A stretch of 64,000 nt of DNA from Lunularia cruciata (Eukaryota > Streptophyta > Marchantiopsida > Lunulariales > Lunulariaceae). The stretch spans positions 20,600,517 to 20,664,516 of the forward strand of contig OX419755.1 in the NCBI GenBank assembly GCA_948567375.1. Reading direction: 5' to 3'. Made by a program: the position numbers and the translations under genes. Position 1 is the first letter of the stretch, and every line of letters begins with the position of its first letter. Below the pieces are notes generated by a model. It had not been told where the DNA came from. It made no database searches and worked only from the letters and a program-made list of their open reading frames with translations. Shown in pieces: positions 20,438-64,000 of the stretch.

Positions 20438-21444
20438 ATGACCATGGAGACATTACAAAGTCAAGTGCAAATCCTCAAGAATGATCAAGCCATGCAAGAA
20501 GAAGAGCCGTCTCAAAACCCAATACCTGCGATTGAAGTACTTGGAGAGGCATCCGTGCCTACGAACCCTATCAACAATGAAGCCACATTGCTACTCCGGA
20601 TGAAGAAGACCTGCAACATCAAACCTTACAAGGGGCAGCGTTCGATGGGAGTAGTGGAAAATTGGATCTTGAGAATGAATCAATATTTTTGATTGTTCAC
20701 AACAGAGATGGTGCAGGCGTGTTTGCATGTGGGTACTTGACCTATAAAGCCCTCACATGGTATGATGCTTGGGGACGATCCATGCTGGCAGAGAGAAGGG
20801 AGGTCACATGGACAACAATGCAAGAAGGACTGCTGAAGAATTTCCAATTGGTGGATTTTGTGCAGATGGCTCGAACCCAACTATGGGGATTGAGACAGAA
20901 GAATAGCGTACAAGAGTATGTGGAGGCTTTTCTAGATCTACAAGTCGCAATTACCGACATGAGTCCAGAAGAGGCTCTCGACAATTTCAAACGAGGGTTG
21001 AAAGAGCGGATTTGCCAAGAAGTCATGGTGCAAAATCCTCACACGGTATTTGAAGCCATTGCTTGTGCGCAAAGAATAGCAGAAGCATTAGGTGGAGGTG
21101 AAGGAGTAGCTCCACCTCAACATTATCAAGCAGAAATGCCACACATGGGTAGACCAATACCAATGGAATTGGGCAACCTTTGATTCCGGGATCGAGGAGC
21201 ACGACCGCTTCAAGGGGAGCGGGGACGGGTAGAAGAACAAAGAGATGGAGTCCCACAAGGAGAAGGGACTCAAGGAGAACAACATTGTTGTTACAATTGT
21301 AGCCGTATTGGGCACATATCTACCAACTGTTGCACTCATTTCCCTGAAGGCCCTTGGCCTTCATTCAGGCGATCTTTGAACAACATGGAGAGGCATATTG
21401 ACAAGGAGGAGGTAGAAATCACTTCGGAAAACAAAGATCTCTAG
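20438..21444 (+). pseudogene. Element A gag, frameshifted
   Basis: Two overlapping frames: 20438-20692 (Q-x-Q-V-Q-I-L-K... to N-W-I-L-R-M-N-Q-Y-F) and 20662-21183, which continues the gag domain (L-T-Y-K-A-L-T-W, Q-E-Y-V-E-A-F-L-D-L, F-K-R-G-L-K-E-R). One frameshift near 20690 joins them. A CCHC zinc knuckle C-Y-N-C-S-R-I-G-H-I-S-T-N-C is encoded at 21289-21330 in the second frame, after an in-frame TGA at 21181. Gag packages the RNA and forms the particle; the knuckle binds nucleic acid. The frame closes at 21444, one frame off pol, consistent with -1 frameshift expression. Confidence 0.85.
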
Positions 21445-21446
21445 TA

Positions 21447-24400: not shown

Positions 24401-24872
24401 ACACCGTCGGCACATGGAGTTCAATGTTGGGGATCAAGTGTGGCTATCAAAAACCAACCTCACATTAGTTGGACCTTGTAAGCTCAGACCTTGTTTTATT
24501 GGGCCTTTCTCGATTCTTCGTCGCATTGGCGCGGTGGCCTATCACCTTGAGCTACCACCACACATGAAGATCCATCCAATCTTCCATGTCTCCCTACTAT
24601 GCAGATATGCTCCCCAATCAGGCCAAGGTCATTCCACACCAGACATTCGACCTTGTCCGACACTCATTGATGGCACAGAGGAATATGAAGTGGAGCGGAT
24701 TCTCCAAAAATGCATGTGTGGTACTCGCCACCCGCGGGTGGACTATCTAGTAAAATGGAAAGGTTACCCCCTCTATGAAGCCACATGGGAGCCCGCTGCC
24801 AATTTGGCACATGCACCTGTGTTGGTGCAAGCATTTGAGCAACAATTGCACAACGAGGATGTTGTGTCTTAA
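21447..24872 (+). pseudogene. Element A pol: protease, RT, RNase H, integrase, chromodomain
   Basis: One frame throughout, interrupted by stops at 21753, 22473, 22896, 23916 and 24387. Protease: L-I-D-P-G-A-T-E-N-F near 21591. Reverse transcriptase: K-L-D-L-Q-S-G-Y and active site F-L-D-D-I-L-V-Y near 22600. RNase H: A-T-D-A-S-G near 23040. Integrase: H-H-C-C finger near 23590-23725, then M-D-L-V-C, I-T-D-K-G-T-Q-F and H-P-Q-T-D-G-Q-T-E. Chromodomain: Y-E-V-E-R-I-L ... V-D-Y-L-V-K-W-K-G-Y ... A-T-W-E-P near 24685-24795, which in this family targets insertion to marked chromatin. Stops at 22473 and 22896 fall where Arg and Gln are conserved, so CGA and CAG became TGA and TAG. Confidence 0.92.
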
Positions 24873-35544: not shown

Positions 35545-36535
35545 CTATTTAGCAGCAATCATTCCCGTTTCACGAGCATAAGCGAAAATACCTCCGGCGT
35601 CGATTACAGGACCAGCGTCTCCAATTGGTTTCAACGCAAATGTCTTGCCATTGGTATGGTTGATCAAGATGTCGTGCTCCAAGTCCACGGTCACCATGTC
35701 CCCGGTAGCATTCTCTTGAAAAATCCTCTTCTCGCTCTCTACAGGGTATAGCTCTCCTGTGGCTACCGCGTTTCTGAAGAAAATGCGAGCGTAAGACTCT
35801 GCCACGACTGCCCTAACACCAGCGGCTCCCATAGCCACAGGAGCGTGCTCCCGAGATGATCCACAACCAAAATTATCTCCTGCAATCATCACAGCATACT
35901 GAGACTTCGTCTTGCCCTCTTCGATAAATTGGCCTAATTCCGCAGGCAGCCCAATCATGGCGTAGCTCCCAAGCTTCTCGTACTCATCAGGCTTGGACGG
36001 CACTAACGTTAAATACTCAGCAGGAATAATTTGGTCAGTGTCGATGTTATCCCCCACTATGAAGCATTTCCCATGAATGACCCTGCCTTTGGCTTTCTCC
36101 TCTTCGGAACGTCCCTCCGCTTGCGCTGCAGCCCTAATTCCACCTTTAACCTTCTGTCCACATGTGTACGTTGCCACAGAGGCTAACGAAAGCCTTGTGC
36201 CAAATGTACTACAGCATTGCAGGGATGATACATATCTCCCAGCGCTGCGAGCCCGAGAAGTCTCTACATCACACTGCAACGTAGGATCACAGGTTTTCAA
36301 TCCCTGGTTTCCAAGTGAACTGAATCTACAGAGAGTACCAGTGAGCGTTAAATTCCAAACAAATCCGAAGATTGGATCTCGGCCTCGGGAGATAAGGATA
36401 ACAAACGGGAATATTGCTTACCTTGACAGAAAAGGAGGAAGGGATTGAAATGCTCGTTATCGTCGCAGCGAAAGCCATAGCTGCTCCTTGTCTCGTGCTC
36501 TTAGCTCTAGAGTTCTCCGACCAGGAGAAGAACAA
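35545..36535 (-). CDS. 3-isopropylmalate dehydratase (isopropylmalate isomerase) small subunit, plastid-type
   Basis: Exon 1 spans 36535-36422 and exon 2 36303-35545, with a 118-bp intron (GTAAGC...CCAG). The small (swivel-domain) subunit pairs with a large Fe-S subunit to isomerise 2- to 3-isopropylmalate in leucine biosynthesis (or the related methylthioalkylmalate step) in plastids. Signatures: G-D-N-I-D-T-D-Q-I-I-P-A-E-Y-L, then G-D-N-F-G-C-G-S-S-R-E-H-A-P, with the substrate-contacting S-R-E-H, and a C-terminal K-P-I-G-D-A-G-P. The first ~85 residues are Ser/Ala/Arg-rich and look like a transit peptide. Two in-frame starts exist: Met at 36535 (290 aa) or 36478 (271 aa, beginning M-A-F-A-A-T-I-T, the more transit-peptide-like start). 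It is divergent from TFIIIA. Confidence 0.93.
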
Positions 36536-41957: not shown

Positions 41958-43611
41958 TTATATTTTCTTCTCACTAATCAAATCAAAGGTAATGCCGTTT
42001 TGGTTCAGACGCTCGATAAGATCAGTAGTGCCAAAAGCAGCACCGGGTGTCATCACTCCGCCTCTGGGTAAAGTCCGACGATGATCCAAAACAAGCAGAG
42101 CACATTGCACTAGACAGATAGGGGTGGTAATGTACCCGATCTCTGGACCAGAAATTCTCGTTACAATTTGCTTGTCAGGTTTGGTGGCGTCCGTGATCGG
42201 TTTGCTGGAATCACTGAAGCCTTTGCCTACAAACCACTGCTGAAATGATGTATCTTTCACTTGCTGCTCAGTAGGTCCTTCTTTGAGAAACACTCCGAAG
42301 GAGAAGATGTGTGGATGCTCCAGTAAGAGTTTGCGGCCCAGCTTGAATTGAGCCATGATGAACAACACGATGCCCAGCACAAAGTAGCCTACCACACCAG
42401 TAAATTTCTTGAAGGAATAGTACACCCCAAAGTGGACGGGTTTGATGTCATTCCATTTTTCTTGCTTGCTTTTGAGAAACTCAGGATTTTCGTCCTCTGC
42501 AGTTGGAAGTCCCTCTGGATGTTCCATCTTTGCTGCAAAGGTCCTTCGCACCACGATTGCATCAGCTGAAGGCAGTTTCGCCGCCCATGTTCCTGAGTTC
42601 TCTTCATAATGAACGATGCCTGCTCTTTTCCCGACAGATCCTGGAATCTGCGACAACCAGTATGTGAGACCCAGTTCAACAATTTACAAACATGCCCCAC
42701 TCTCTGGGGTCCGACTGAAATAGTTGGCTGTTCGAAGAGCATGTCATAGACGCTCCGATAGAGAGCTGTCTTGCTTTCTTCTACCATCATTTTCCACTAG
42801 CCTCAATTGCAAAAACATGTTGACAAAGTTGCTACATAAAGTATGGCAGATCATGATCAAATTTATTGGCACTGCTAAGGTTTAATATAATTAAGGTCAA
42901 GGAAGGACAAATTGGTAAACCAAGGTGACGGTTTATAACCTGAGGACGAGGACGTCGGGGACGAGACTTTCTTAAGATCTGAAGCTCGCTTTCATGGGCA
43001 ATACCCAGCACGGCCGATTCCCAAGTACCAATGTTTCCGTGCATCTTGCCACTTGAGGACGTGATGAGATACGAGTCACAGGATTGAGGTAGAGCAGGTG
43101 GGTGAAACTGGCGAGCATTGAAAATTGCACCAAACTCTGCAGGAATGGAGTCATACCCACAAGCGTTAACAATTAAAGAGCCCTTACTCGTGGCCTGATC
43201 GTTATATTTTGCTTCTATTCTCTCCATGAACTCCGGCTCCCCAGTTATATCCAGGTAGTCAATTCCTGCTTCCACACATGCGGCCACCACAGGTTCCCCA
43301 TATTTCCGGAAGGGGCCAACACAGTTGAGAACTAAACGTGTTTTCTTGCACATGTGAGCTATGGAGCCGGGGTCTTCCACATTGGCCTCAATAATGGACA
43401 CCTGAACTGACGGCTGCGTCCCTTCCAGAGCCCATTTTAGGGAAGCGGAGAGCTTAGCCTTACTCCGTCCTGCGATTCCGACTCTTCTCTGTCCTCCGTT
43501 TGGGGAATCGGTAAACTTCAAAAGCTCCCGGATCACGTACTTCCCTGTGTAGCCTGAAGCTCCGAAGATCATCACATCCAGCAGCTCCTCTGCCATCATT
43601 GCTGAATTCAA
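41958..43611 (-). CDS. Saccharopine dehydrogenase-like oxidoreductase (SCCPDH family, 453 aa)
   Basis: Exon 1 spans 43611-42940 and exon 2 42647-41958, joined in phase (...R-P-R-P-Q / I-P-G-S-V...). Start at 43611 (M-N-S-A-M-M-A-E-E); Met5 or Met6 is equally plausible. An N-terminal Rossmann fold is shown by D-V-M-I-F-G-A-S-G-Y-T-G-K-Y-V and A-G-R-S. Family blocks follow: N-C-V-G-P-F-R-K-Y-G, D-Y-L-D-I-T-G-E-P-E-F and N-A-C-G-Y-D-S-I-P-A-E. A hydrophobic segment (G-Y-F-V-L-G-I-V-L-F-I-M) in exon 2 is typical of the plant/animal SCCPDH group, whose substrate is not settled; it is not the lysine-pathway enzyme. The length is normal. The C-terminus retains I-S-G-P-E-I-G-Y-I-T-T-P-I. Confidence 0.92.
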
Positions 43612-46600
43612 CGTATCTCTCTATCTATGAATCTATCACCTGCAAGAACCCTCTGGTGTTGGTAAAGTTTGCCCAACAGTGAGCAATCAAATTCAAATGT
43701 CCGGAGAACTTGCTCTCCGTAATGCTTTTCCTGTCAACGAATTGGACAGGCAATGATTCTTAACATCTGGGGAAGAATCGAATTTCAGCTTCCCCCGGAG
43801 AGTGTAGTAGTGGCCAGCTCATACCTAGAAGCGATTAGAATTAACTCCGGGTCGCCACTTGAGCTCTCGATCTTCGACCACGTAGTGGTTTCCGAGGGTG
43901 CATGAAGCCGTTCAAGGAGCAAGTGACTACTCGGCAATCTGAGAATCTTAGGTGATGGGCTCTACCGGCCGGGTGTAGATTTGTTTGTTTAGCCTTTGTG
44001 GGTAGGAACCCAATAGTAGAAGGAGAGAAGAGGAGAGTTCCGGGATGATTAGTAACAAGTCTAATGGATTGATTGCTGGAGATTTGACTAGCTTGACTTA
44101 CAGCTAGTTTACCCTTTATGTGATATTGAGTGCACACATGCGACTAATGATGAGGTTTGATAGCACCTGGTTTGTGAGCCGGCTTGTCTCTCACTCAAAA
44201 TGAACCTCTTAGGGCTATTGTGATAACGCATCATGGATTAAGAAGGCAAGAAATCTCAACTCTATCATACTCCTCTAAAGCTAACACTCCAAGACTCAAG
44301 ATATTGTTCACTAGAGAATTCAATGAAAAAGAGATAGTTGCAAATGAAATGATGTGGAATATCTCCTCACTCCTTGTTTATATAGTTGTGAAATAATTGC
44401 ATACCAAAGTTACTAATTATTAGAGTAACTCAAGTTACTAGACTAAAAGTAAAGTAAAGTCAAAAAGTATAAAAGAATATCCATTCACATTGGCATATTC
44501 CACTGACATGTGATCCTATCTTGACCCAACCACTAAGTCAAGGATTTCTTCACATGGGTTATCCTTGGATTATAGAAGAATCCAAAACAAAAAGGCTTGC
44601 GGGCCCAAGAGTTCTCAACTCTTTCCTCAAAGCCAAACACCTAGGAATAATACCAAGTCAACACACTAGAATCCAAAATAGTGGTGCTCATATTTTCCAC
44701 CTCCTCTAAAGTAAGGTCCTTTCTATCTTAGCTATGACTAACTCTAGCTAATCATGACTAATGTAGAACTATCCTTTATCTCTATATAAATAATATCTCT
44801 CAAGTACTTATAATACCAAGCTAAATATCACAATACCACACACATGCACAAATGGGTGTTACATGTCTCTTGATCTTTGCACACCATAGGATATACCACA
44901 TACTTGGAGTAGATGGCTATTTGGAGTTAGAAAGACCTAACCGCTAGCTAAAGAGGTAATTGTGGCACTTTAGAGTTCATGTATGACTTATGTGTGAGTT
45001 GTGATTCTATACTATATGATGTTGACAACGATGTATGTTGTGTAGCAATGTATATATGCACGACAACTATCACAACATTTGTAGCGTTGAAGCTAGGTTG
45101 CTCGGATGCTGGAGTGGTAGTGTTGGTAGTTATAGGTATTTTGGTAGTTACTCTTGGACTACTTGTTGGTAGTCTGATTATATATTAGGGCTATTGAGCC
45201 CATAGTGGGACCCACCATCACTTGCATTGTTTGCATTGTTAGATGTGCCATTATCGTTGCTATTAGGGATAAAGACCAAGGTCGAGCAAAGGAGTATGCC
45301 TTTGAAGTGTAGCTCCAAAGAACTCAATTCCTTGTGTTGAGCCTTCAAGTTCTTGGCTATGGTGGACAAAGACCGGCAAGCATCACATGGAGTCTCTAAG
45401 CTAGAGTGAGTGTGGCTCAACTATAATCATAATTGTTGGCATAGTGTTGAGTGAAGGATCTAATACCAATTTGATTTGAGTGTGATTCGTGTGAAAAAAA
45501 AAATTGATTATTGTGACACTTTAGAATTCATGTATGACTTATGTGTGAGTTGTGCTTCTATAGTGTATGATGTTGACACAAATGTATATACGCACTACAA
45601 TCTTTATCCATATTATCTTAAATAGTGAACTTGTGAGTTAAAATGTCTTACTCAGTGAAATATAAATAAACTCTTATCTAGAAAGACTAAAATGAACAAC
45701 AATTTCAACTTATCAACACCTATAGTAAATAACTCCAAAGAAATACAATACAAAGATAAAAAAACCAACAAAAAACTATATAGTTTAAGATTTAATAGGA
45801 TGTTTCCTTATAAATAGGTTCTCTTATATGGAGTTTGAGGTACAAATTCTAATATTTGTTGGTATTTAATATTTATATTCCTTCTTAATGTTGAATCAAT
45901 ACTTTATCTTGTATTTTCTTTCATTTTAGACATATATTTTAGATTATTTAGTGTTTTGAGTTTATTGATAGTAATTTTGAAGAATTTTATGATTATTATG
46001 ATAATGATGATTTAATTTTATAAAAATAATTTAATAATGATTAAATAATCACTAAAATTTATGATTAATGAACTAAAAAAAGTTTGGTTTATATTTTGAA
46101 AGCATGATATTATAATAAAGAAGATAGATACATTAATAAGAAGATATTATTAAATTTTTCTTTGAAGGAATGAAGTCTTTAACAACTTTTAGCACTATAG
46201 AGTTCAAGAAGCTAACTGTTTTATCCATCTCATGTACTATCTAGTACACAAAATCTATCGCGCTTGATCAAAATCAAATTTAGTGAATTAAGTTAAATAC
46301 ATTATCTTTCTCGTATACCACTACCTTTTAATGTAATTTAGTTTTATTTACTAAGTATTTAATTTCTAAAAATAATATTTATTTTCAGTTGGATTTAAAG
46401 AAGTTAGAATTTTAATCTTGGCTAAAAATTTTAAATATTTGATAAATAATTAATAAATAATAATAATAATTAATCTTTACTTTCTACAATTCACTTTCAT
46501 TTTTTGGCCTTTTCTTTCTCTAGAACTAATCTACTCTTTCAAAATGATTAACTACAATATTTTTGAATAAATTAGATGTAAATAAATAAATATATTATTA

Positions 46601-48693
46601 GTAACTAGATGGATCTATTCACTCAAATAAGTAGTTTTTTGAAGATTGATATTATTGAACTTTCAGTGAATTTGTTACATATATGATTAACGTACGTAAG
46701 TTATACTTACTCATCAGTTAGGAATTATAAGTATAAGACTTAACTTGATTGGCAGCTATGACTAAAATCTACAGAATAGTCAATTGGGAAGGAAAAGAAG
46801 TACTATATTGGTTGTAAATTACTAGAGGTCTATCTTGGTACCAAGGTAAGAAAAATAAACCTTTGTTAATTTTATCTATGCATTTATGAACATCTCATCA
46901 AATATATACAGCTTATTAATATATCTATAACTCTTGTTTGGTTTGCTAATGATGATGTTGTTGTACGTTCAATTTTCTTACATATAGCTCTTGGTCAAAA
47001 AATAACTTGTAATCTTTAGACTCTTGTACTATTAATCTATGTTGTACCAAAGGTACTCTTCATAAATCAAGTAAAACATAAGGTTAAGAGATTGACGGGT
47101 ATACCTTTGATCAATATAAAGTTATGAAGAAAGACAATGTACCTCTAATCAAGTACTAATCCAGCTGACTAGATCAATAAACTTGACATCAAATAATTTT
47201 TGCCTTTTTTAGAAAATAGGAGACTAAATCTCTAAATATAGGTTTATAACAAAAAGGTGTTATCCTAAATAATCAAAAATACTTTAATAGATTTTTATAA
47301 AGAGAAAAAACCTCTGTCTTTAATAATGAAGATTTTAGGTAGAAATGCATCCCTAGGAACAAAGTTCTAATGGGGAGTTAATTATTAGACTTGTATCCTC
47401 TTGCTTGGTTGATCTTATTTTCTTAGAGTATTTCTCAATAAGGCCCTTATTACTGGGTTTGGTTCTACCTTCTTGGGTATAGTCATGGGGAGTTAGATAC
47501 GTTAAATCTTTTAGCTTATTCATGTTGAGTATGCAAAAGCTATGATTTGAGAGTTTAGATCCATTTATATGTTTATTTAATTGTTTCTTTTCATTACGGG
47601 GATAAATTACTGATACATATGAATCAGATAACATCTCATTTCAGAAATATGAATACTTCTTATTTTATTGTAAGATCACATTGTGATGTTGAGCTTTATG
47701 AGATCCTTCCATTGATAAAGAATACATTTTTTCGCATATTCATAAATGGTGTTGATGCTTCTTACAATCAATCATCATCTCTAGATGCTCATCTCTAAGG
47801 ACTCATATTTGTTTCCTTAATTGTCTAAGTGATACATGATCAAAGGACTTTATTTCAATAGAATGGATTTGAAGGAAACTACTTTGATCTTCAACAAATC
47901 TACTTCAATTAAAAAAGTCTCAGCATACTAACTAACTAGCAAAGGACAATCAAAATCTTTATTTCCAATGTTCATCTCAACCTCCACTCTCAATAATTGT
48001 CTAGAAACTCTTACTATTTTTCTTCATGCATTGTTTCTAACCAACCTTTCTAAGACTCACACTTTCTTTTTCAGGTATTACTTCTTACTTCCCATAATGG
48101 TGCATTATCTTCATACATGTGGTGAGGTGAACAAAGATGTTTGAGCAAAGCTTGCAAATTAAGAGGTCAATCCGATATCCATATTTTCAATTTCGACTTG
48201 AGATTGTTAGAAAACAAAAACAAAACGTATACTAATAAATAATATGCATGAAATTCTACTTTCAATCAACATGAAAAGTCCTTAAATAAAGACATCCAAG
48301 AGTAATGGAAAACCAAACAAACTGTTAATTTCAAATTCAAATTCCAAGTTCGAGTTTTATAACTATAAACATTGAAACCTTCTTCAAAACGTAATGTATA
48401 GAGAGGTATAGTTGTAAACTTTCCTTCAAATGTAAATATAAAAATTACCGCCGACGACTTACCGACAGACTTGCGAATCCTACGAGACAGGATATGCAAC
48501 TTTACATGAGAATGACTACGGGATTGAGCATTCTGTCTCCCCTCAAGTCACGAACGACCATCTATCTATGGAGGAGCCTACAGACCCATTTCAGTGCTGC
48601 GAGAGCTCTAGATTGCATTAAATCTGAGGCGGAAGTGACCAGGTGCACTGAATAAGAATGTACGAACTGTAGTCTCTCCTTTTCATTCGACAT
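43612..48693. other. AT-rich intergenic region with LTR fragments
   Basis: 43612-44150 is probably the promoter of the SCCPDH-like gene. Beyond it, to ~48500, the sequence is AT-rich and lacks genes. It holds an LTR fragment related to element C (45108-45480), flanked by two copies of a ~115-bp sequence (44955-45070 and 45505-45610, both with TTCATGTATGACTTATGTGT). 45780-48200 shows nothing I can name. Confidence 0.55.
45108..45480 (+). repeat. Solo LTR fragment related to element C
   Basis: Aligns with 56505-56890, for example GTGGGACCCACCATCACTT versus GGGGCCCACCGTCACTT and the shared TTCTTGGCTATGG / TTCCTGGCTATGG block. Here almost every CG of the other copy reads TG or CA, a classic methyl-cytosine decay signature. 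Confidence 0.75.
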
Positions 48694-50983
48694 ATGTTCG
48701 AATTGACGACGAGACGACAGAAACAAGTTATTGGATTCGTTGGAGTTAAAACGAGAAGAATAGATATGTGGGTCCAAACATGTTTTGCAACAGCGTGCCC
48801 TGTTCTGAATCCGGTTTGCAAAGCATATCGATTGTCTTCCCAGAAAGCAGAGCTTGAAGCATGGAGGGTGCATTTTGTAGCTCCATCGACAAATGGTGCT
48901 GCATCCAGGTATGGGAAATGGATGCAGCTTGAATTTGCTGGGTTGTTCCGAAGTCCGAGGAAATGCGCGCCTAGGAAAGTGGGTGCTAGCAGAGCTGCAG
49001 CGATGAGTAATTCCGCCTCAAGGATTTTACGAAGTGTGAATGCAGTCAAGCCTGATGATAGTGAAAGAGGAAAAAGCGTACAGGACGAGTCAGTGAAGAT
49101 TTTGGATATGGAGGGGTACTTCAGTGGGGAGAACGATAAAGTGGCCAAGTTTTGCGAGCAACTTAAAGATCAGTGCCACAAAGTTGGATTCTTCTACGTC
49201 AAGAATCATGGGCTGTCTGAGGAGCTTTGTGATTCAATGCTGGAGATGGCGAGCAGATTTTTCGATCTGTCTGATGAATCGAAGGTTCATGCCAGTCCCT
49301 ACAATTTTCCTGGATATATTCTGAAATCTTATACAGACAGGGAATGCATTGAAATGGGTTTGGGCACTATTTCCTAGCATTATACCTGGAATCGTTGCAA
49401 GGGAAGTAAGATGTGTGACCATGTGTACCAGATGGAACTGGACTATAAAAATTCTGCTCAATTCAGGGGATACATGAAAATTGGTGCAGAAAATACAGCC
49501 GGAGTTACAGATTTTCGTGAACAGATTGAAATTGGACCGGATGAACCAGAGGATATTGACGTCGTAGGTAAGCTCTCGAGTCTCTCCCACTTTGGATCTT
49601 TGGATCTCCTGGTAAACGTTGGTGTAATATGTCAACGACGATCCCTGTTGGTTTTGCAGATGAGAAGGAGATCAAGCTGGTACATCCTTTCTACCGCCGT
49701 TTGCGGGGACCCAACCAATGGCCACCAGAAGATACCCTACCTTCTTTCCGACGACAGACACAGGAGTTTATGCACAAAATGAATGAACTCTCCATGCATC
49801 TCATGCAGGCTTTGGCAGTTTCTCTTGGTTTGGGAAAGGAGTACTTCGACTCCACTTTTCTGCACATGCCTCACTACCAAATGAAGGTAAGAGTGTAGAA
49901 TGAACTCTACGAACTTATGGCTCACCGGTGGTGCAACTAAATTCAGAGGGAGGGGCCATAATTTGGATTGTGTTTAATGTCCTGCCATCACTGAAGTTCT
50001 TATGGAACCATTCAGGTGGTGAGGTATCCTCCAAAGCCAGAGTGTGAAGATGCCGGGGACATTGGTATGCTTGGGGTTGGTGCACACAGCGACAGTGGTT
50101 TCTTGAGTCTTCTCCTCCAGGATCACGTTGGTGGTCTTCAGGCAAGTGCTTGTATGACTTCAGCTTGAGTCATTTACTCTACTCACCTTTCTAAGGGACG
50201 TAACTGTCCATGAGAACATACTCGTATTCACTTGGTTCGCGAAAGATTTTGTATGAAGTATGGTAAAGGAGAGATGGAGAATTATGGTAAGGGGGATGAA
50301 ATGCAAATCGATTTCCGGAAGAAGTTTGAGAGATACACAGTCGAATATATGCAAGCAGGAAAGGTACTGGGGGCAGGTCACTGGAGCTACAAGCAGAGCA
50401 CCTTTTAATTTTATGTGGTTCTCTGAAACAGAAGACAGAGCTGTTGATTATGATCCAGAGAGAAAAGGTGCCAAGAACTGAAAGAAATCTTCTAATTACA
50501 TAATCATAACATAGTGGAACTGCAATGTTCCAGGCGCAAACTACAGATGGGAAGTGGATCGATGTTCTTCCGGAACGGGGAACCTTTGTCGTCAATCTTG
50601 GGGAGATGCTCCAACTTGCTACAGGTGGATACTACTTGGCCACCGTCCATCGTGTGGTGAGCCAGTCTGGAAATAAATCCCGTTACTCTGTACCGTTCTT
50701 CTTCAATCCTCGTTTGGACACTGATATTAGAGCCTTCAACATAGTGAAGAGTGGGGTTGAAATCAGCGGGGATAAATCGCCGCCCGTAAGAGTTTCTCTT
50801 GGAGGGCTGTCAACTCATGGTGGTGGGAACAAGTTGCTGCCAGTCTTTGGGCAAAATGCTTTCAAAAGTTTCGTCAGAAGTCATGTAGATGTTGTGCGGA
50901 AGCATCATGAGGACTTAGTGCAAATAGATGGCAGCATAGCACTTTATAAACTTGAACTGGACTTGACAAGTGAGATACTGTAA
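48694..50983 (+). CDS. 2-oxoglutarate/Fe(II)-dependent dioxygenase (isopenicillin-N-synthase-like)
   Basis: Exons: 48694-49284, 49432-49567, 49660-49886, 50016-50141, 50534-50983; phases agree (509 aa from the first Met). The enzyme family couples 2-oxoglutarate decarboxylation to substrate hydroxylation using Fe(II). An N-terminal DIOX_N region contains G-F-F-Y-V-K-N-H-G-L. The iron triad is H and D in G-A-H-S-D-S-G-F and the distal H in A-T-V-H-R-V; R-Y-S-V-P-F-F is the 2-oxoglutarate-binding block. The first ~100 residues precede the domain and may be a plastid targeting sequence; alternative starts are 48766 (485 aa) and 49003 (406 aa). Intron 4 has a GC donor (CAG/GCAAGT). Substrate unknown. 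Confidence 0.88.
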
Positions 50984-54612: not shown

Positions 54613-56504
54613 CCCACCTTGAAAGTCACTGAGAGAAGTGAACTAGTTCGTGACCTCTTCTGGAGACTTGGCCAGCGACACGCTTCCTCAAATCGTGGAA
54701 CAATTCATGCCTTGGTTTTGTGGTGATATCCTATGCAGTAACAGAGAGTTCATGCTGCACAACCCACCCACGAATCAACGCTTGTGTAGACGAATGTGAA
54801 TGAGATTAGTAAGGAGTCCTTGAGTGAACATTTAGACCGCTTTCTCTTTTACGCCGAGGACCTCACAAATCACATATTCAAACAATTACTTAGTTGCTTA
54901 CTTACAACACGACATCTTCTTTACAATCTTGGCTATATGTACACTGGTCAATGTAACTAACATTACTAACCCTTCATTTACTGCTGACTTGTATCACCTC
55001 CACAATCAGATGCCCATGTATTTCCAATCTAAACTTGTACTATAGATTTTCACGATCCCTATCAATTCGTAGCTTAAGAAAAGTTTCCCGCAACCTCCTC
55101 CACTATAACATCCTCCGCCTCCACATTTCCTCCCCGTACTTCTCCTTTACCGATACTAATGGGGCCTAGCCCCATTCTACCTCTTTCGTCTCTCCCTTGT
55201 AAGGCTTGATGGGGTCTTCCCATCCTTCTTGTGTTGTATGTGGGCGCCTTCTCTCTCACTTCTCCTTTCCCGGTATTTCATGTTCATGTGCCTTAATCTT
55301 AAACGGCCAAGAGTAGGTGCAAGCCGATGGCAATTAGACGATGGGGCTTTGGCACCTGAAATACCAGATCCCAAGTGGTTATCCATCCTCCGAGAGGGGA
55401 AATTAACACTCGATCGAAAACCATCGAAACACATCCAATATTCTGGCCCGAAATGAGGTGATGGAATGAGATGGGATAGGCTGGGGAGAATCTAGAGGAA
55501 AATCGGTAGGCAGAAGTGAACTCAATCTCATCCACCGCAACCTAGTCCATGCAACTCAATCCAACTCAATGAAGCTACTGAATTCCTTGCGACCCGCCCC
55601 ATTGATAGTTTGTAATGTGCTCCAGTGAACGTTGAGTGCTGATCGATGAGCTATGCCCAGGGGCTGATGTGCAGGAAAGAACTTCGGAACTCGCCTACGA
55701 GAAGTCTTGGCTCAGTAACCGCGGTCCGTCCCACAACCTCAGAGAAGACTCTACCTGGTCGAGTATATTAACTCCTGGTTCGACAGACGTCTTAACATTT
55801 GCTTCGTTGTCCTATGGGTCAAAGTAGAAAAGACGATTTTCGTTACAACTTTTTGATCAATAAATTAACACATGAATCTCAAAAGTACTTCAAGATTTTT
55901 GATGGTCTTATATGATGTACAATTCATGCATTTCTGGAACAAATTCCAGACAGATACGAAGTCATGATAACTGTCTTCCATTCTTCTTGCCATTTTATTT
56001 TTCCTGCTCAATAAGGACCAATTTCCCTCCACACAAGGCAGGCTCCCCTGTGTTGAGAGAGACTTGTTTCCAACCTTGGGAGTTGTGGTCAAATTCACAC
56101 AACTATGCTTTACTCAATGGCCCGAGACCGTGGTCTTGGGATGAGTCAACCTCACATGAGGATACTCAAGCCGCGGTTGCCACAGGAACAATCACGAGCT
56201 AACTACAGTAGTTCGTGACTGGGATATGGTCAACCACATCCGGGTTCAAGTCCTCCAGTTCACCGAGCGTGTACTGTAGGTACGCCGACCCGGTCAACTT
56301 GAAGTGTGCTATTCCCTTCTTCTTATTGCTCTATACATTGTCTTGTGTGAGATTACTTCAATATTAAGTCGATAGATAGGGTGGATATCCTTGAAACTAA
56401 GGAAAGTGGCCCTAAGTTGAATTGCCTAATATGAACCATGAAATCGTTGCACCATGTTGAAAAAGTAAATGGGGATGTAGGTTGTCATGCCATTTGTAGT
56501 TCCG

Positions 56505-57848
56505 GAGTTCTAGTGATAATAATTAGAGTTATTCTAGTAGTTTTTCAGAGACTACTTTCCGACGGTTAGATTTTGTGTTCGGGGTACTGACTTCACGGTG
56601 GGGCCCACCGTCACTTTGCACCGTTTGCACCGTTGAGTGTGCCGTCAGCGGGACCGTTAGGGTTTCAGTGCTAGCTCGAGTCCAGGGGGTATAGTTTCGA
56701 AGTGAGTTCCAGAGAGCTCACTTCTCTGATGTTAAGCCTTCGAGTTCCTGGCTATGGTGTACAGAGGCCGCCGAGCGTCACCTGGATTCTCTATGCTTGA
56801 GTGGGTGTGGCTTGACTGTAATCAGTGCCTAGTTGTTGGCAGTTTATAAAGTGAGAGATCAAGTACTGATCTGAGTTGAGTTGAGTTGAGTTGAGTTGAG
56901 TTGAGTTGAGTTGAGTTGAGTTGAGAGTGTTAAGCAATCTGATTACATGAGAGAAGTGAAGTCAGGGGGAAATCGGGTGTAGGAACGTTGAGTGTTGATG
57001 GTATCTCCAAGCTCGGTGGATCGTGGTAGCTCGATTCAAGTTCAATGTTTCCCTAGTGTGCAGAAGCTCGTTCAAGTGATGCAGATTTGGCAGTTAGGCG
57101 GATGGTGTGCGGAAGCGCTGGCCAAATTTCGAGCAAAGAAGGAGCAATTTTCGAGCAGTGTTGTGATTTTGAGCTCAAGAGGTGAAGGCAGGACCAATTT
57201 GCTACGAGTTGGGCTCAAAAAGTCAAATTGAAGGTGGAGTTGGGAAGCTCTTCTCATTAAATTGTGATTTGGAAAAACTTGTTTTGTCAATTTGGCTCGA
57301 GTGGAAAGTTAGCGGGGGATTTGGCGGACAGCCATGTTTAGGGTTTACATCAGATTTTGGGCCAGATTTGGAGGAGTTTTCATTGTTTGGCCAGATTTGG
57401 AGGACATTTGCTAGTTTGGAGGACTTTTGCAGATTTGAAGAAGTTTTGCCAATTTTGGAGGAGGTTCGAAGTGGCAACAAAAAAGGCCTCATTTTGGCGT
57501 TTAGAGGCTTCGAGGCATAGGGCTGTGGGCTATGAGAGGCTACGAAGGCCTAAAAGGGCCAGCAAGCCAACTTGCTGGTGTGAGGCTAGCTAGTTTAGAG
57601 TAGATCTTGGTCATTGGTTGGCAAAATCTGCCTTTCCTACTAGATTGTGCGTAACAGGGTTTGACCCCTAGATCTCTTGTTCCTAGACTGGTGCCCTAGC
57701 CAACTTGTCCACCCTCACTTGTTGTCCTAGGGACTATGCCACTGTTATCTATACACATGTAGCTTTGGCTAGGAGAGGCAGTTTGATCCCATTCTTGGTG
57801 ATCCTGGTAGCTTAGGACTTAGATACAAACTGCTCTTATGTCAAATGC
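56505..57848 (+). repeat. Candidate 5' LTR of element C
   Basis: The left part (to ~56890) recurs at 45108-45480. A possible end is ATGCCA near 57848, followed two bases later by TGGTGGCAGAG, which could be a primer-binding site. Internal degenerate GATTTGGAGGA repeats lie at 57360-57480. The 3' LTR is outside the window, so both ends are provisional. Confidence 0.35.
56871..56925. repeat. (TTGAG)n pentanucleotide microsatellite
   Basis: About eleven perfect copies of TTGAG inside the presumed LTR of element C. The homologous site at 45470 has only one or two, so it expanded after the copies diverged. Confidence 0.95.
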
Positions 57849-58207
57849 CAAATGGTGGCAGAGTTAGTCCCGTGTTGTGTTATGAGATGGAGGGTTTTCA
57901 TTTAGATTTCCTGTGATTGGATTCCCTCCATTCTCTACTTTCTGTTTGTGCACCACGTTTGTGTGAGGTGCCCTGACTTTTGAGCATTGGTGCTCTAGTG
58001 TGCTCTCGGTGGTGAGGCTTGAGTGATGAACAGTCAGACTACCTTTGTTTCTCTCTAGTGAGGCAGGAAGTGATGACCTGCAGACCGTGAGAGTGCGTGT
58101 TATGATGGCAGGTTACAGGTTGCCCTTTCCCCTAGTGTAGTTATCTCGGTTAGAGTTACATTAGTGGGTGGTGCTTTGGTGGTGTTGGCACGTGGTGGTG
58201 TTGGCAC

Positions 58208-59713
58208 TTGGTGGGGTACTTGCGGTTGCAGTTGGTGGTTTGGGTTTGTTGTTGTGGTTACTTTGTCACAACGGAGTTCTTTGGAGATTCCAGAGGAGTT
58301 AGCCCTACAGTACACAGTGGGTTTACTCGAAGTGGTGCTTGGTATCAGCCTGTATCTCAAGTCCCAGTGAGGGAGGAGATTGACTCTGAGTTGGAGTTCG
58401 ACACAGGAGCTGATTTAGTTGAGAGTGCACTTGGTGTGTCCGCACCGTTGTTGTGGGACATGGACGAGATTTATGGGGCCTCCAAAGGCCCTAGGCGTTA
58501 CTCAAGTACAGTGGGTACCATTGAGTTGGATGACTTCATCCAAGAGTTCGATAGTTGGTGTGATCTGCAGCAGATGCGGAACCTGACTTTGTTCACACCC
58601 TTCATGGCATGGAAGGGGTTGTTGCAGCACTTGGAGGGTCCGCCAATGGATGACTACCATGAGTTCAGGAGAGATCATTTAGAGGAGATTGAGTTATGGA
58701 GACAGTATTGGTCTCCACACTATGTCTCCATCACTTCAGGCTCGGTGGCCAGGAGTAGATCGGCTGTACCCACGAGTTCTAGCTCAAGTAGTGTTGGTGG
58801 AGCTAGTGGAGGTGCACTAGCTGGAGATAGTGCTACTACAAGTGGAGGTACCGCTGCAGGAGGTGGTGTGGTACCGGGGTTTAACCCCATGGTGGAGTTC
58901 TTTCTATGTTTGAGGCAGAACTACCAGGAAGTGCAGACTAACAAGTTGAGGAGCTTGCAGGAGTTCCAACGGAAGGCTAGAGAGAGCCTACGCAAGGTAT
59001 ACACTCGCATGAGGCAGCTGATCGGTTTCACTCAGGGAGTTACTGAGGCCCAGGCAGTCCAGTTTTGGTATGGGATACTGGACAGGGAGTTGCGACGTAG
59101 AGTTCGTGATGCTACGTTGTTACAGGCTACTTCACCTACTTTGGCAGTGGTCTTTGGTTTGGCTGAGCGTATTGAGCTCAACATGGTGGAGGAGAGAGTG
59201 GTGACATCTGGATTTGGTAGGGAGACCTTATCCACGACTGTGACTTCTTCTAGAGTGCAACAGAGTGCACCACGCCCAGTTGGTTTTTGAGGACAGGGTG
59301 GACAGCCCAGATCCTATGGAGCGAGTGGAGGGCCTAGTGGAGTTAGACCCTTACCCTCATTTTTGAGTCAGCAGCAGTCAGTGAGTGGTGGTGTTGCTTG
59401 TTGGACTTGTGGTGGACCTCACCAAAGGAGAGAGTGTACTCAGGGCAGCGGACCTAATACCTCTGGTGCATCACAGCCAGCACAGAGGCAGTGTGAGCAT
59501 TGCCACAGATTTGGTCACACTAGTGACCGGTGTTTTGACCTACACCCGGAGTTACGGAGTGGTAAGGCTGCTATGGCAGGTAGTAGAGGAGCTCCAGTTC
59601 ATGGAGGACAAGGTGGTAGAGGTGGTGGTAGAGGATCTACACCTAGTAGGGGTGCAATACCTGCCCTTACTTTTGACACAGCTATGGCTACTCGGATTGA
59701 GCAGTTGGAGTAG
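58208..59713 (+). pseudogene. Element C gag with two zinc knuckles
   Basis: One frame with a stop (TGA) at 59288 and another at 59711. Residues ~80-300 of the first stretch resemble Ty3 gag: F-D-S-W, F-M-A-W-K-G-L-L, then Q-E-F-Q-R-K-A-R-E-S-L-R-K-V-Y-T-R-M. A Ser/Gly-rich linker follows. After the stop come two CCHC knuckles, C-W-T-C-G-G-P-H-Q-R-R-E-C (missing one spacer residue) and C-E-H-C-H-R-F-G-H-T-S-D-R-C, near 59398 and 59494, then a Gly/Arg-rich tail. The true start could lie a little upstream or downstream of 58208. Confidence 0.8.
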
Positions 59714-59716
59714 AGA

Positions 59717-61051
59717 TTGGCTAGTATGGCTATTGCTCAAAGGAGATCAGATTCGGGTGTTGAGGATTCCACCTCCTATGCTGGTGATAGAGATGCTTTG
59801 GACTTCATGTGCGGAGCAGCACAGGTGGATGCATCTGCAACAGTGACTAGGAGTGCAGTACGTGCTCCAGAGCCTAGAGGAGCATCAATGGAGTTGGACC
59901 CACAGAGAGGAGAGGTTGGGAGACAAGTCAGACTTCCCCAGTCTTTCACGCTATCTAAGGCATTGCAGACAACATCCATGGTTCCTAGACGTCCCAGTGT
60001 AGGTGTGGTAGGTGGTGATGGAGTACATGATGGACTACATGCTAGTCAGCCACTTGCTACTACACAAACTGAGTCTAGCATGATGTTGGGGGCGGCTCAG
60101 CTGATTATGCGGCATCCTTTGTTTTCAGCTAGTGACATGTTTACATTGGGAGTTGACCCAGCCCCAGTGTTCCGGTTGGCTGCCACGTTGTGTGAGAGTA
60201 GGGATGGTGCAGTTCCTACTACTAGAGCAGAGGTGGTTGGTAGTGGAGCTGACTTGGTTGAGGAGCATGGGATCCGTTCAGCGACCAATGGTTTATGGCA
60301 GGCAGCAGCGGCTAGACTGGAGGAGTTGCCAGCTAGACCGGCCTTTGAGAGAGCGCGGTTTACACCTAGTGTTGTCCTATTGGATAACCAGAGGGGGATT
60401 TTTTGTTTGGTGGGACCTTCAGGGAAGGTCTATACACCACAGAGAGTCTTGTTAGACTCTGGTGCGCAACCCCTTATGTTGGGGAAGGCTGCAGTTGTTG
60501 GTCTGGAGTTACGGAAGACCAATGTGGAGAGGTGTCCATTTCAGATCCAGACATCTCTAGGTGGTGGTTTGACATAGTACATCACACGTGGAGAGCTTGT
60601 TATCCAGGTTCAGCCTGGTCATCTAACTGATAGCTCGGTGGTGAGAGCTCAGGCTATTGCAACGATAGTTGAGTCATATGATGTGCTAGTTGGGGGAGCG
60701 GTGTTATACCCCATGGGTTTCAGCATTGACTATTGGGAGGAGACAACCTCTTATAGACCTGGTTGGCAGTCTGGTGAGGGACGGGCATGTTGCCTACCAA
60801 TACGCTTTAGTAGTGGAAGTCTTGGCTCACTACAGTCCGAGACCATGGCAACATCAATTTTAGCTTTCAATGGTGCAATTACTTGGCCTGGTGACTTGTT
60901 GGAGGGGAACACCCATGCAGAGGATACTCCAGTACCAGAGGAGATCACTCGGCTTTGGAGTACGAGTGGGATTGTTCCATCCACCTTGGATGTTCCATTG
61001 TGGAGTTCAGAGGAGGCATTGCAGCAACATGCAAATCAGTTGGTGCAATAG
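59717..61051 (+). pseudogene. Element C protease region
   Basis: Same frame as gag. A long low-complexity linker (59717-60350) precedes a retropepsin signature, R-V-L-L-D-S-G-A-Q-P-L-M-L-G, with the catalytic Asp codon at 60455-60457. After a stop at 60575 the frame continues through I-T-R-G-E-L and D-V-L-V-G-G-A-V-L-Y-P-M-G-F, typical of the C-terminal half of Ty3 proteases (usual D-x-I-L-G-x). A stop at 61049 separates it from the methyltransferase. Confidence 0.8.
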
Positions 61052-62257
61052 GCTTGGAGTGGAGCCTTTGTACCATCAAGAGATGAGAGTGAGGATGAGC
61101 TTCCAGAGGCGATTGCTTTGACACCTCTAGATACCACACTCATTGCTTGGCAGTATCCAGTAGAGGGGATATGCCTATTGGAGTTGTTTGGTGGGATCAG
61201 CACCGGACTAGTTGCGGTGTTACAGGCGGGTATCCGAGTACAGAGGTACTTGTATGTAGAGAGAGATGAAACTGCTAGGTGAGTCTCTCTACATCATGTG
61301 GCACACTTGGCCTATTGGTATCCGGAGTTATTACCAATGTCAGCAGTCAGAGGTTACCAGAAGGCCTTACCAGGAGACATTTCCTTATTAGGGGCGCATG
61401 ACCTAGAGGAACATGGGCCTATTCACTTGGTGATTTTTGGATGGCCATGTCAGGGACATACACGTGCGGTCCATGGTTTGGGTCTTCAGGATCCTTGTTT
61501 TGGTGTGTTTTGGGAGATGTTACGGATACTACGACATCTCCAGGTTCATCAGTCTGTTTCTCTAGCTTACCTTTTGGAGAACGTTCCTTTGATGGGTGAT
61601 TCTTGCACTAGAGTGGTGGCGAGTACACATTAGGTCCATTCTTGGATGGGACCAGCTGTATTGTTAGATGCAACCAGAGTGGGATCACGGGCTCATCGTC
61701 TTCGTCTTTGGTGGACGAACTTCTTACCCAGAGAGGTTCTACAACGTGCTTATGATGGGATTCAACGACTTGACTATATCCTTGTTGATGATATCTTGGA
61801 TGTTGGGCGTCAGTCTTAGATAGTGGTAGTGGCTGGTAGGTCACCTATGGCAGTGGTAAACCTAGTTGGACAGCCTAGAGCCGCATTTCCCACACTCATG
61901 AGTTTCCCAGGCTCTCATGCTTTTCAAGAGAGGGGACCTGGACTTGTTTGGGACTCACAGTTACAGCAGTTGGTGGAGCCCAACGCTGATGAGAGAGAGC
62001 GGGCGATGGGTTTTTGCACCGGTATTACCGCTGTTCCAGCAGTGTCAGAGGCATCCAGGCGTCAAGTGTTAGGTCAGGCTATGGACCTGAATTGTTTGAC
62101 CTGGATTGTGAGCCTTGGCTTGGCAGAGCAACGTAGGATGCGCTTGATAGGCATCACCACTTGGACACTTGTGAGCCATGTGCCTATCGAGACGATTCAG
62201 GCACATGCTGGGACCGAGTGGACATGGTATTCTTGGGACACATCCAGTAGCTACTAG
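61052..62257 (+). pseudogene. C5 cytosine DNA methyltransferase domain within the retrotransposon polyprotein (broken)
   Basis: In frame with gag/protease. Motif I: L-E-L-F-G-G-I-S-T-G-L (61181-61212), followed by the acidic Y-V-E-R-D (motif II). Motif IV: G-W-P-C-Q-G-H-T, catalytic Cys codon at 61448-61450. Motif VI: L-L-E-N-V-P (61571-61588). Motif VIII: R-A-H-R-L-R-L-W-W-T-N (61688-61720). Motif X region: E-R-A-M-G-F ... R-R-Q-V-L-G-Q-A-M-D-L-N (~61994-62095). The order is canonical, so it is not the permuted DRM type; F-x-G-I-x-T-G and the last block resemble Dnmt3, while P-C-Q-G resembles Dnmt1/CMT. No CXXC, PWWP or chromodomain is seen. Stops at 61279, 61631 and 61819 kill this copy. 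Confidence 0.9.
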
Positions 62258-62388
62258 GGAGAGTGGTCTACTTGGAGTCCATCCAGGTGAGCGTGGGCTA
62301 CTTGGATTACACCCTTGGTCCACATGGGATGTAGCTAGAGGAAGTCTGGAGCTTGCAGCCAGAGTGGAGGGAGTTTTTCACATAGAGG

Positions 62389-64000
62389 TTGGGACCTCTA
62401 GTGGTCTGGAGCATGACACTATTGCTCCCAAGGGCCCAGTGTAGTAGCCAGTCAGTACGTCTTTCACTCCTACTACAGTTACAGAGGATACTTGGGAGCC
62501 AGATCTTTGGACCCAAGCTTATTGGAGAGGAAAGACGGAGGGTTTGGAGGTTCTTGAGGAGTCACACGAGTTGTTTTGCCTTCAGTATGAAGGATTTGGG
62601 TGCTCTGAAGGGACCTGGTATACGGATTGAGCTGACTAGCGACACACCAGTTTTCTGACGTCCTTATCGATATAGTGATATGGAGAAGACATTGATTCAA
62701 AGCCGGAGTAGTGACCTTTTTGAGGCTGGTTTGGTGGAGATTTCACATGGAGAGTATGCATCAGCGACAATGATGCCAGCCAAGAAGGATATGCATGGCA
62801 ACTATACAAATAGGCAGATGTGTGGAGATTACCGTCCTATCAACCGACAGACTAGGGCTGATCGGTATGCCATGCCTACACCGGAGGAGATTTTTGATGC
62901 GATTGGGCATGCAAAGGTCTTCAGTACTTTGGATCTTTGAGCAGGATATCATCAATTGCCGATCAAGGAGGAGGATAAGTCCAAGACAACATTTTGGGCT
63001 ATTGATCCTCACGACAAGGAGGTGTTATATCAGTGGAGGTTCTTACCATTTGGGTTGAAGAACGCTCCTGCTGAGTTCCAGAGGGTCATGGATAGGATCC
63101 TAGCTGGATTGGATTTTTCTCGGTGCTATATTGATGACATTTTGGTTTATAGCACTACTGTGGAGCAGCATGAGAGACAGTTGTTGGAGGTGTTTGAGAG
63201 GTTGAGATCTCATGGACTCAAAATTACATCCTGGGAAGTGTAGGTTCTTCCATGAGCAGGTTGAGTATTTGGGTCACACTATCTACCCCGGAGGACTTGG
63301 TGTTCAGCAGACCAAGGTGGAGGCTATTGCACGTATTCCTTGGCCTACGAATGTGAGCAGAGTGCAAGCATTCCTTGGGTTGGCGAACTTCTATCGCCGC
63401 TATGTTAGAGGATTTAGTGTTATTGCCAAGGCCTTGACAAAGCTGACCAAGCTTACACAGGAGTGGTGTTGGGGAGATGAGCAAGAGAGAGCTTTTGTAG
63501 AGCTCAAGGAGAGGTTGACATCTGCTCCTATTTTGAGGAGACCAATCAGGGGACGACCATTTCAGGTTCACACTAATTGGAGTATGTTGGGGCTTGGAGC
63601 GGTGCTCACCCAGCATGATGATGAGGGGAAGGAGTTTGTGGTGGCCTATGCTAGTCGCTCCAACAATTCAGCGGAGGCGAAGTATAGTTCATATGAGGGA
63701 GAGTGCTTGGCAGCAGTTTGGGCAGTAGCACATTTCCGATGTTACCTATTTGGTAAACCCTTCACTCTCATCACTGATCATCAGCCGCTAAAGTGGTTGA
63801 TGAAGTCCGACAAGCTTTCAGGGAAGCTTGCACGATGGGCTCTGATTTTACAGGAGTATGATTTCACGGTTGTTCACAGACCTGGAATGGTGAATCGTGA
63901 TGCAGATGGGTTGAGTAGAATCCCATGTCCCAGCCAGCAGGATCAGACCGGAGCACGTTGGCATGGTGAGATAGATGAGGAGATGGTGCCAGGTTGGCAT
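62389..64000 (+). pseudogene. Element C reverse transcriptase and RNase H (runs off the window)
   Basis: Pre-RT block R-I-E-L-T-S-D-T-P-V-F, then E-A-G-L-V-E-I-S-H-G-E-Y-A-S. RT: C-G-D-Y-R-P-I-N, L-D-L-(stop)-A-G-Y-H-Q where Arg is usual (TGA at 62938), F-G-L-K-N-A-P-A-E-F-Q, active site C-Y-I-D-D-I-L-V-Y near 63126. A frame change near 63235 precedes Y-L-G-H-T-I, A-F-L-G-L-A-N-F-Y-R-R-Y and RNase H with Y-E-G-E-C-L-A-A-V-W-A and I-T-D-H-Q-P-L-K-W-L. The typical first RNase H Asp block reads V-H-T-N-W-S, so Asp is replaced. The sequence ends in the post-RNase H linker (R-D-A-D-G-L-S-R). Confidence 0.9.

What the first reader, a model, noticed from the sequence alone, without database searches (positions are those of the whole stretch)
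61052..62257. Retrotransposon-encoded C5 DNA methyltransferase between protease and reverse transcriptase
Seen: methyltransferase motifs I, II, IV, VI, VIII and X in canonical order, in the same frame as gag and protease of a Ty3-type element and followed by its RT and RNase H. Known: cytosine methyltransferases captured by LTR retrotransposons have been reported from a few lineages such as a streptophyte alga and dinoflagellates; ordinary land-plant Ty3 elements lack them. Inference: the element may have methylated its own or target DNA, for example to hide as silent chromatin between rounds, to maintain inheritance of methylation, or to counter host restriction. The mix of Dnmt3-like motifs I/X with a P-C-Q-G motif IV suggests a lineage separate from host MET1, CMT and DRM enzymes.
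Basis: partly seen in the sequence, partly recalled or inferred. Interest (0 to 1): 0.96.

Follow-up and report, generated by a model that had tools for sequence, protein, structure and literature searches.

The report
Moss-and-liverwort jumping gene carrying DNA methyltransferase
A high-copy retrotransposon of a bryophyte, probably a liverwort, carries its own DNMT3-like DNA-methylating enzyme, placed between its protease and reverse transcriptase and cut off from the latter by what looks like a leaky stop codon, as part of a family with relatives in liverworts, peat mosses and green algae.

Summary
Window 61112-62164 encodes a DNMT3-type C5 cytosine methyltransferase (MTase) inside a Ty3 retrotransposon. 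The window copy is dead (stops, frame changes), but its family is large: one exact 34-base site recurs 633 times in the genome.

In six better copies gag, protease and MTase form one open frame ending at a UAG followed by CAG-CCA, which fits the CARYYA context of leaky plant-virus stops; RT follows in the same frame, then RNase H, DDE integrase and a PHD finger. TAG stands there in 622 of the 633 sites. A relative with about 50% MTase identity keeps UAG-CAA-UCA. Split repeats (A-coding-B-A-B) carry 4-bp target duplications in 7 of 7 copies.

The MTase is the best conserved part of ORF1 in one distant pair, folds like DNMT3A/B and shows modest signs of purifying selection.

The kind is known (KnitGypsy-Dnmt3, 2018). 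New here: a bryophyte family, the apparent readthrough layout, the PHD finger, and a clade reaching green algae. Function (methylating its own cDNA) is inferred.

The parts
56483..64000 (+). Ty3-type element, window copy, cut by the window end; continues to position 66391 counted on into L040 (native next DNA)
   Evidence: 4-bp duplication AGGT on both sides, TG...CA ends, repeats A1/A2 and B1/B2
56483..56945 (+). Repeat A1 (5' terminal repeat); its partner A2 lies at 65835-66284 in extended coordinates, flanked by B1 (65727-65834) and B2 (66284-66391)
   Evidence: K2P between A1 and A2 is 0.064
58460..60577 (+). gag to protease part of ORF1; first ATG 58460; broken by stops in this copy
   Evidence: same frame open in L041-L046
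59399..59533 (+). two CCHC-like zinc knuckles (CWTCGGPHQRREC, CEHCHRFGHTSDRC), named by eye; no Pfam hit
   Evidence: translation, place; no family
60449..60469 (+). protease active-site motif LLDSGAQ, named by eye
   Evidence: Asp_protease_2 hit in relative L069 at E 7.8e-4, below that family's cut-off
61112..62164 (+). DNMT3-type C5 cytosine methyltransferase domain (stops at 61280, 61631, 61817 in this copy)
61436..61462 (+). motif IV with catalytic Cys (FGWPCQGHT)
   Evidence: Cys kept in 90 of 92 relatives with a residue there
62442..62444 (+). conserved UAG between MTase and RT; in this copy it is out of the gag frame and the next codon CAG has become TAG
62659..63243 (+). reverse transcriptase pieces
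   Evidence: Pfam RVT_1 3.5e-19 on 62941-63240
63206..64000 (+). end of RT and RNase H; integrase and PHD finger follow beyond the window (PHD about 65419-65556 in extended coordinates)
   Evidence: Pfam RT_RNaseH 2.9e-37; integrase and PHD hits in L041

Best explanation
This is one dead copy of a Ty3 retrotransposon family that codes for its own DNMT3-type de novo cytosine methyltransferase. SHOWN: the order gag - zinc knuckles - protease - MTase - UAG - RT - RNase H - DDE integrase - PHD finger; the conserved UAG in CARYYA context with the same frame continuing into RT; split direct repeats with 4-bp target duplications; a DNMT3 fold and conserved catalytic motifs; modest signs of purifying selection on the MTase. 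INFERRED: most ribosomes stop at the UAG and make Gag-PR-MTase, and a minority read through to make the polymerase part, so the MTase is produced at Gag-like amounts and travels inside the particle. There it methylates the element's own new double-stranded cDNA before integration, and the PHD finger on the integrase steers insertion by reading histone H3. New copies would arrive already marked, which avoids treatment as foreign DNA and limits damage to the host.
For: ORF1 and an in-frame start of ORF2 after the UAG in 6 of 6 copies examined, all picked for an open ORF1. TAG in 37 of 37 distinct copies with a match at that place (one further copy, L029, gave no match there) and in 622 of 633 exact-flank sites. 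UAG-CAA-UCA in the divergent relative L069, with an open 1047-codon ORF2 in frame. Type I readthrough = UAG + CARYYA (PMC5382211 passages). Proteins from Sphagnum (P0116), Calypogeia (P0036) and Marchantia (P0122, P0123) end within 0-2 residues of our ORF1 end in the alignment. Structure pLDDT 92.8; the 50 PDB matches shown all carry DNMT3 titles; profile DNMT3A 7e-26, best labelled DRM 7e-10. L041 vs L069: MTase 52% identical vs gag 29%, protease region 35%, tail 27%. Variants shared by three or more copies are less often amino-acid changing than singletons in the MTase, 11:20 vs 87:57, p 0.016. De novo CG methylation by retrotransposon DNMTs is reported (PMC5890265 abstract).
Against: No activity, readthrough or particle data. 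None of the six better copies has a fully open ORF2: after the UAG the frame stays open for 134-641 codons, and in L042 and L043 it later changes frame, so no complete intact copy was seen in this genome. Several Marchantia, Sphagnum and Riccia gene models run past the junction into RT with pieces of varying length left out. The RNA after the UAG folds strongly in L069 (z -3.96) but not in L041 (z +0.82). The selection test is modest (p 0.016; p 0.073 when variants shared by two are added; nothing on the protease side, p 0.58), and the copies were picked mainly by MTase match. The window chromovirus does without an MTase. That cDNA is the target, and what the PHD reads, rest on analogy only.
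Confidence: 0.55

Rival explanations
1. The MTase acts in trans on the host genome or on other invaders (for example methylating competing DNA viruses or elements), not on the element's own cDNA.
For: Gag-like amounts implied by the UAG layout would leave much enzyme; an antiviral role of transposon methylases was proposed (PMC6338049 passages).
Against: Placement inside the Gag-PR-MTase protein argues for particle packaging; no data either way.
Confidence: 0.15
2. The MTase is a dosage or partner decoy: it binds host DNMT3-type enzymes or DNA and interferes with silencing, and catalysis is secondary.
For: DNMT3 enzymes form mixed oligomers (recalled), and matched entries include DNMT3A-DNMT3L complexes.
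Against: Catalytic Cys, ENV and RxR residues are kept in 93-98% of the relatives that have a residue there, which a decoy would not need.
Confidence: 0.1
3. The UAG is an ordinary stop, and RT-RNase H-integrase-PHD is made by another route (re-initiation, splicing or a separate mRNA).
For: No readthrough measured. Some Marchantia, Sphagnum and Riccia gene models bridge the region with variable joins, which could be splicing but looks like gene-caller artefact. The RNA fold after the UAG is not shared.
Against: ORF2 continues in the same frame, in L041 with its first ATG 141 bases on, and the CARYYA context is kept in two lineages that share about 50% MTase identity.
Confidence: 0.2
4. Chance insertion of a host methyltransferase fragment into one retrotransposon copy.
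For: The window copy is broken.
Against: Hundreds of copies and relatives in other plants and algae; separate from the host DNMT3-like and DRM fragments in a tree.
Confidence: 0.01

Closest known systems
KnitGypsy-Dnmt3 of Klebsormidium nitens (PMC5890265; abstract, the charophyte section, the discussion and passages seen)
   Same: Gypsy-type element with a DNMT3-type MTase; DIRS-like repeat arrangement with Gypsy domains; purifying selection reported
   Different: Described as within the Pol polyprotein ORF; 'PHD' occurs 0 times in the main text and no leaky UAG is mentioned in the parts seen. No K. nitens sequence was listed in our searches, so kinship is untested.
SymbioDIRS-Dnmt3 and SymbioLINE-Dnmt of dinoflagellates (same paper)
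   Same: Retrotransposon-borne DNMT; CG de novo activity shown for the DIRS type
   Different: Tyrosine recombinase or LINE machinery; the tested LINE enzyme did not methylate DNA in yeast
Methylase-encoding Ty3/Gypsy and DIRS elements listed in a review (PMC6338049, passages)
   Same: States that Dam- and Dcm-type enzymes occur in such elements of green algae, charophytes and others, so the algal side is not new as such
   Different: Says they are not present in land plants such as tracheophytes; a 2025 survey passage (PMC12344493) names only streptophytes and dinoflagellates, after the 2018 paper
Chromoviruses (e.g. the element at window 20.5-24.9 kb)
   Same: Ty3-type RT, RNase H and integrase with a chromatin-reading domain at the end
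   Different: Chromodomain instead of a PHD finger; no MTase
Tobamovirus type I readthrough (PMC5382211, passages)
   Same: UAG followed by CARYYA upstream of the polymerase
   Different: Here in a retrotransposon, after Gag-PR-MTase
Green-algal polyproteins RT-RH-MTase-INT-PHD (Haematococcus, Scenedesmus, Monoraphidium, Chlamydomonas eustigma, Cymbomonas)
   Same: Related MTase, RT and, in most, PHD
   Different: MTase lies between RNase H and integrase (97 of 289 proteins held show this full order)

Membership tests
DNMT3-type C5 cytosine methyltransferase | C5-MTase motifs I, IV (PC), VI (ENV), VIII (RxR), X in unrearranged order | tested here: met
DNMT3-type C5 cytosine methyltransferase | closest sequence and fold match to DNMT3 rather than DRM, DNMT1/CMT or bacterial Dcm | tested here: met
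   none of the 57 chains at E <= 0.1 is labelled DNMT1 or CMT
DNMT3-type C5 cytosine methyltransferase | catalytic activity on DNA | not testable with these tools
   -
Ty3/gypsy LTR retrotransposon | Ty3-type RT-RNase H followed by DDE integrase | tested here: met
   L041; relative L069: Ty3 RT 2.7e-77
Ty3/gypsy LTR retrotransposon | two matching complete LTRs | tested here: not met
   repeats are A-coding-B-A-B; the 5' end lacks B, in 7 of 7 copies
Ty3/gypsy LTR retrotransposon | TG...CA ends and a short target duplication | tested here: met
   4 bp in 7 of 7 copies
DIRS (tyrosine-recombinase) retrotransposon | split repeats | tested here: met
DIRS (tyrosine-recombinase) retrotransposon | tyrosine recombinase, no target duplication | tested here: not met
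   rve integrase, duplications
Chromovirus | chromodomain at the integrase C-terminus | tested here: not met
   PHD finger there instead, E 5.2e-11
KnitGypsy-Dnmt3 | shared descent of MTase and RT with the K. nitens element | tested here: inconclusive
   no Klebsormidium protein among the listed hits (63 of 183 hits and 7 of 127 were not listed; searches scored only 7999 candidates)
Type I stop-codon readthrough | UAG followed by CARYYA | tested here: met
   35 of 37 distinct copies; L069
Type I stop-codon readthrough | measured readthrough | not testable with these tools
   -

The most novel reading that the evidence does not exclude
A single ancient capture of a DNMT3-type methyltransferase, together with a PHD finger, founded a Ty3 lineage that has lived in the green lineage since before green algae and land plants parted. 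In land plants it evolved a virus-like leaky UAG so that the DNA-methylating enzyme is made at capsid amounts: a mobile element that brings its own epigenetic writer and histone reader and marks each new copy before it lands.
Probability: 0.35. Interest if true: 0.9.

Novelty: new variant of a known kind. Interest (0 to 1): 0.78.

Why it matters
Cytosine methylation is a main weapon of plants against transposons, so an element lineage that keeps the writer enzyme, with signs of selection, asks what it gains. The family has members in Marchantia, a laboratory model, so the question becomes directly testable. The leaky-stop layout gives a concrete prediction (MTase made at Gag-like amounts), and the PHD finger gives another (insertion guided by histone H3). 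[quoted passage not shown] the bryophyte hits listed show that they occur in at least some land plants.

Tried and rejected
Chance capture of a host gene fragment: rejected. A natural frame change between MTase and RT, as the window copy suggests: rejected, the six better copies keep one frame across the UAG. An RNA structure after the UAG shared by L041 and L069: not supported. A kinship test with K. nitens: three protein searches gave no listed Klebsormidium hit. DNA relatives in viral contigs: 16 loci with partial, weak matches (27-53% over short stretches), not followed up. RT outgroups from the same genome (PF00078) and a search for copies by RT alone, to find any without the MTase, did not complete. 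The RT tree therefore rests on two outgroups (Ty3 and the window chromovirus), and whether MTase-less copies thrive is open. Host species: not named by any search; bryophyte, probably liverwort, is inferred from the nearest named relatives and a host DRM. That the named hits are bryophytes or green algae is recalled.

Papers: ten searches in the held library; going by the listings, none of the papers shown is about an MTase-bearing retrotransposon of a bryophyte. Most subscription papers are not held. Seen: PMC5890265 abstract, sections 9 and 11 and passages; PMC12344493, PMC6338049 and PMC5382211 passages only; all others as search listings.

Full report
Observation. The frame 61052-62257 lies in the gag-protease frame of a Ty3-type element and carries C5-methyltransferase motifs in order. 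Pfam DNA_methylase hits the piece 61283-61633 at 7e-5, just above its cut-off. The copy is dead: stops at 61280, 61631 and 61817, more upstream, RT pieces in another frame and RNase H back in the gag frame. Over the stretch compared (L041 3500-7590), its differences from letters held by at least 80% of 34 other copies are mostly C-to-T on either strand (106 of 141), at 26 of 208 CG, 60 of 454 CHG and 20 of 1442 CHH sites. This is what long CG and CHG methylation would leave.

Family. A related MTase (P0001) as query gave 111 scored places in the 566-Mb genome, all at 72-74% identity. The first look offered 13,363 candidates, which is not a copy count. An exact 34-base site at the end of ORF1 (with the codon left free) occurs 633 times, 622 with TAG, against 0 for the reversed control. 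Six copies were fetched, picked for an open ORF1. All six have a 1428-codon open stretch (1330 codons from the first ATG in L041) ending at the same UAG, and RT following in the same frame for 134-641 codons; four keep that frame to the PHD finger with further stops, two (L042, L043) change frame later; in none of the six is ORF2 fully open. Pfam on L041: DNA_methylase, RVT_1, RT_RNaseH, Integrase_H2C2, rve and PHD; gag and protease gave no hit.

Leaky stop. In 41 rows, which are 37 distinct copies, the codon is TAG; one more copy, L029, gave no row. The next six bases fit CARYYA in 35 of 37 (exceptions: L016 and the window copy). Plant viruses use UAG-CARYYA as a type I readthrough signal (PMC5382211 passages). 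A divergent relative, L069, from a contig binned as a cyanobacterium, has TAG CAA TCA and then an open 1047-codon ORF2 in frame; its ORF1 is cut by the contig start. Proteins from Sphagnum (P0116), Calypogeia (P0036) and Marchantia (P0122, P0123) end within 0-2 residues of our ORF1 end; 15 long proteins without a species name, P0134-P0150 without P0137 and P0142, end 79-137 residues after the MTase against 102 here (only protein ends were seen, not their stop codons). Against: other Marchantia, Sphagnum and Riccia models run on into RT with varying pieces left out, no readthrough was measured, and the RNA fold after the UAG differs between L041 and L069.

Ends. The repeats are A (about 449 bp) - coding - B (about 107 bp) - A - B. 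A begins TGTC, B ends GACA, and 4-bp target duplications flank 7 of 7 copies. A1 and A2 differ by K 0.0065-0.018 in the six copies and by 0.064 in the window copy, so the six look fairly young. A DIRS-like repeat arrangement with Gypsy domains is described for KnitGypsy-Dnmt3 (PMC5890265, Fig. 4 legend).

Enzyme. A profile of 24 relatives finds DNMT3A at 7e-26, an entry labelled only 'DNA methyltransferase' (4onj; a DRM by recall) at 4e-13, labelled DRM2 at 7e-10, and DNMT2 and HhaI near 1e-7; no chain labelled DNMT1 or CMT among 57 at E <= 0.1. The model of the L041 domain has pLDDT 92.8 and pTM 0.92; the 50 PDB matches shown of 1302 all carry DNMT3 titles, best E 2.7e-18. Among 95 relatives the catalytic Cys is kept in 90 of 92 and the Glu of ENV in 91 of 95. 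Between L041 and L069 the MTase is 52% identical, against 29% gag, 35% protease region and 27% tail; RT-RNase H (68%) and integrase-PHD (70%), taken from L045, are more conserved. Of 42 loci tried, 35 copies had enough cover (four of the seven dropped are host genes, three are copies with short cover). In these, amino-acid-changing to silent variants shared by three or more copies against singletons: MTase 11:20 vs 87:57, p 0.016; RT 7:15 vs 63:20, p 2e-4; protease side 26:16 vs 96:46, p 0.58; adding variants shared by two, MTase p 0.073.

Relatives. Named hits: Calypogeia, Sphagnum, Marchantia and Riccia, Cymbomonas and Monoraphidium, Haematococcus, Scenedesmus and Chlamydomonas eustigma. Of 289 proteins held, 97 show RT-RH-MTase-INT-PHD, the algal order; in the bryophyte type the MTase stands before RT. 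In an RT tree (51 of 114 usable proteins, plus L045 and L069) all 53 MTase-bearing rows part from Ty3 and the window chromovirus (SH-aLRT 99); this element groups with Marchantia (100), then L069 (92). In an MTase tree (30 of 95 usable relatives) the element enzymes form one side against the host DNMT3-like and DRM fragments and DNMT3A (98/99), with the algal order nested among the others at modest support (80/77 to 94/96). The three outgroup rows fill only 33-49% of the columns, so single capture is favoured, not proven.

Reading. The layout predicts Gag-PR-MTase as the main product and MTase in the particle. The likeliest use is methylation of the element's own cDNA before integration, as proposed for SymbioDIRS-Dnmt3 (PMC5890265 discussion). 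The PHD finger, whose best solved matches for L069 include PHF12, UHRF1 and KDM5 fingers, may read histone H3 at the target. Both are inference.

Noticed in passing
window 20581-24872: A second Ty3 element, a chromovirus with SH3-like and chromodomain at its end, broken by stops.
   Followed up: partly
window 733-1437 (-): Fragment of a Copia-type polyprotein (Pol_BBD domain; Copia by recall).
   Followed up: no
window 35548-36417 (-), 42835-43620 (-), 48673-50980 (+): Host genes: aconitase C-terminal domain (isopropylmalate isomerase small subunit by eye), saccharopine dehydrogenase NADP-binding domain, and a 2OG-Fe(II) oxygenase in exons.
   Followed up: partly
L069 (CADCWO010000201.1); P0028: Retrotransposon sequence filed under bacteria (a Synechococcales bin; an Obscuribacterales MAG): likely misbinned eukaryotic DNA.
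   Followed up: partly
L001, L002, L003, L004: Exons of the host's own DNA methyltransferases: a DNMT3-like one (L001), a DRM (L002), and by eye only a CMT/MET1-like piece (L003) and a second DNMT3-like piece (L004).
   Followed up: partly
L043:1726-1859: A 134-base piece matching 9560-9693, which spans the start of repeat A2, sits in the 5' leader of this copy.
   Followed up: no
L069:3489-3608: Very stable predicted RNA hairpin just after the UAG (z -3.96), absent in L041.
   Followed up: partly
P0158, P0160, P0166: Algal-type relatives carry a further long C-terminal region after the PHD finger that was not identified.
   Followed up: no
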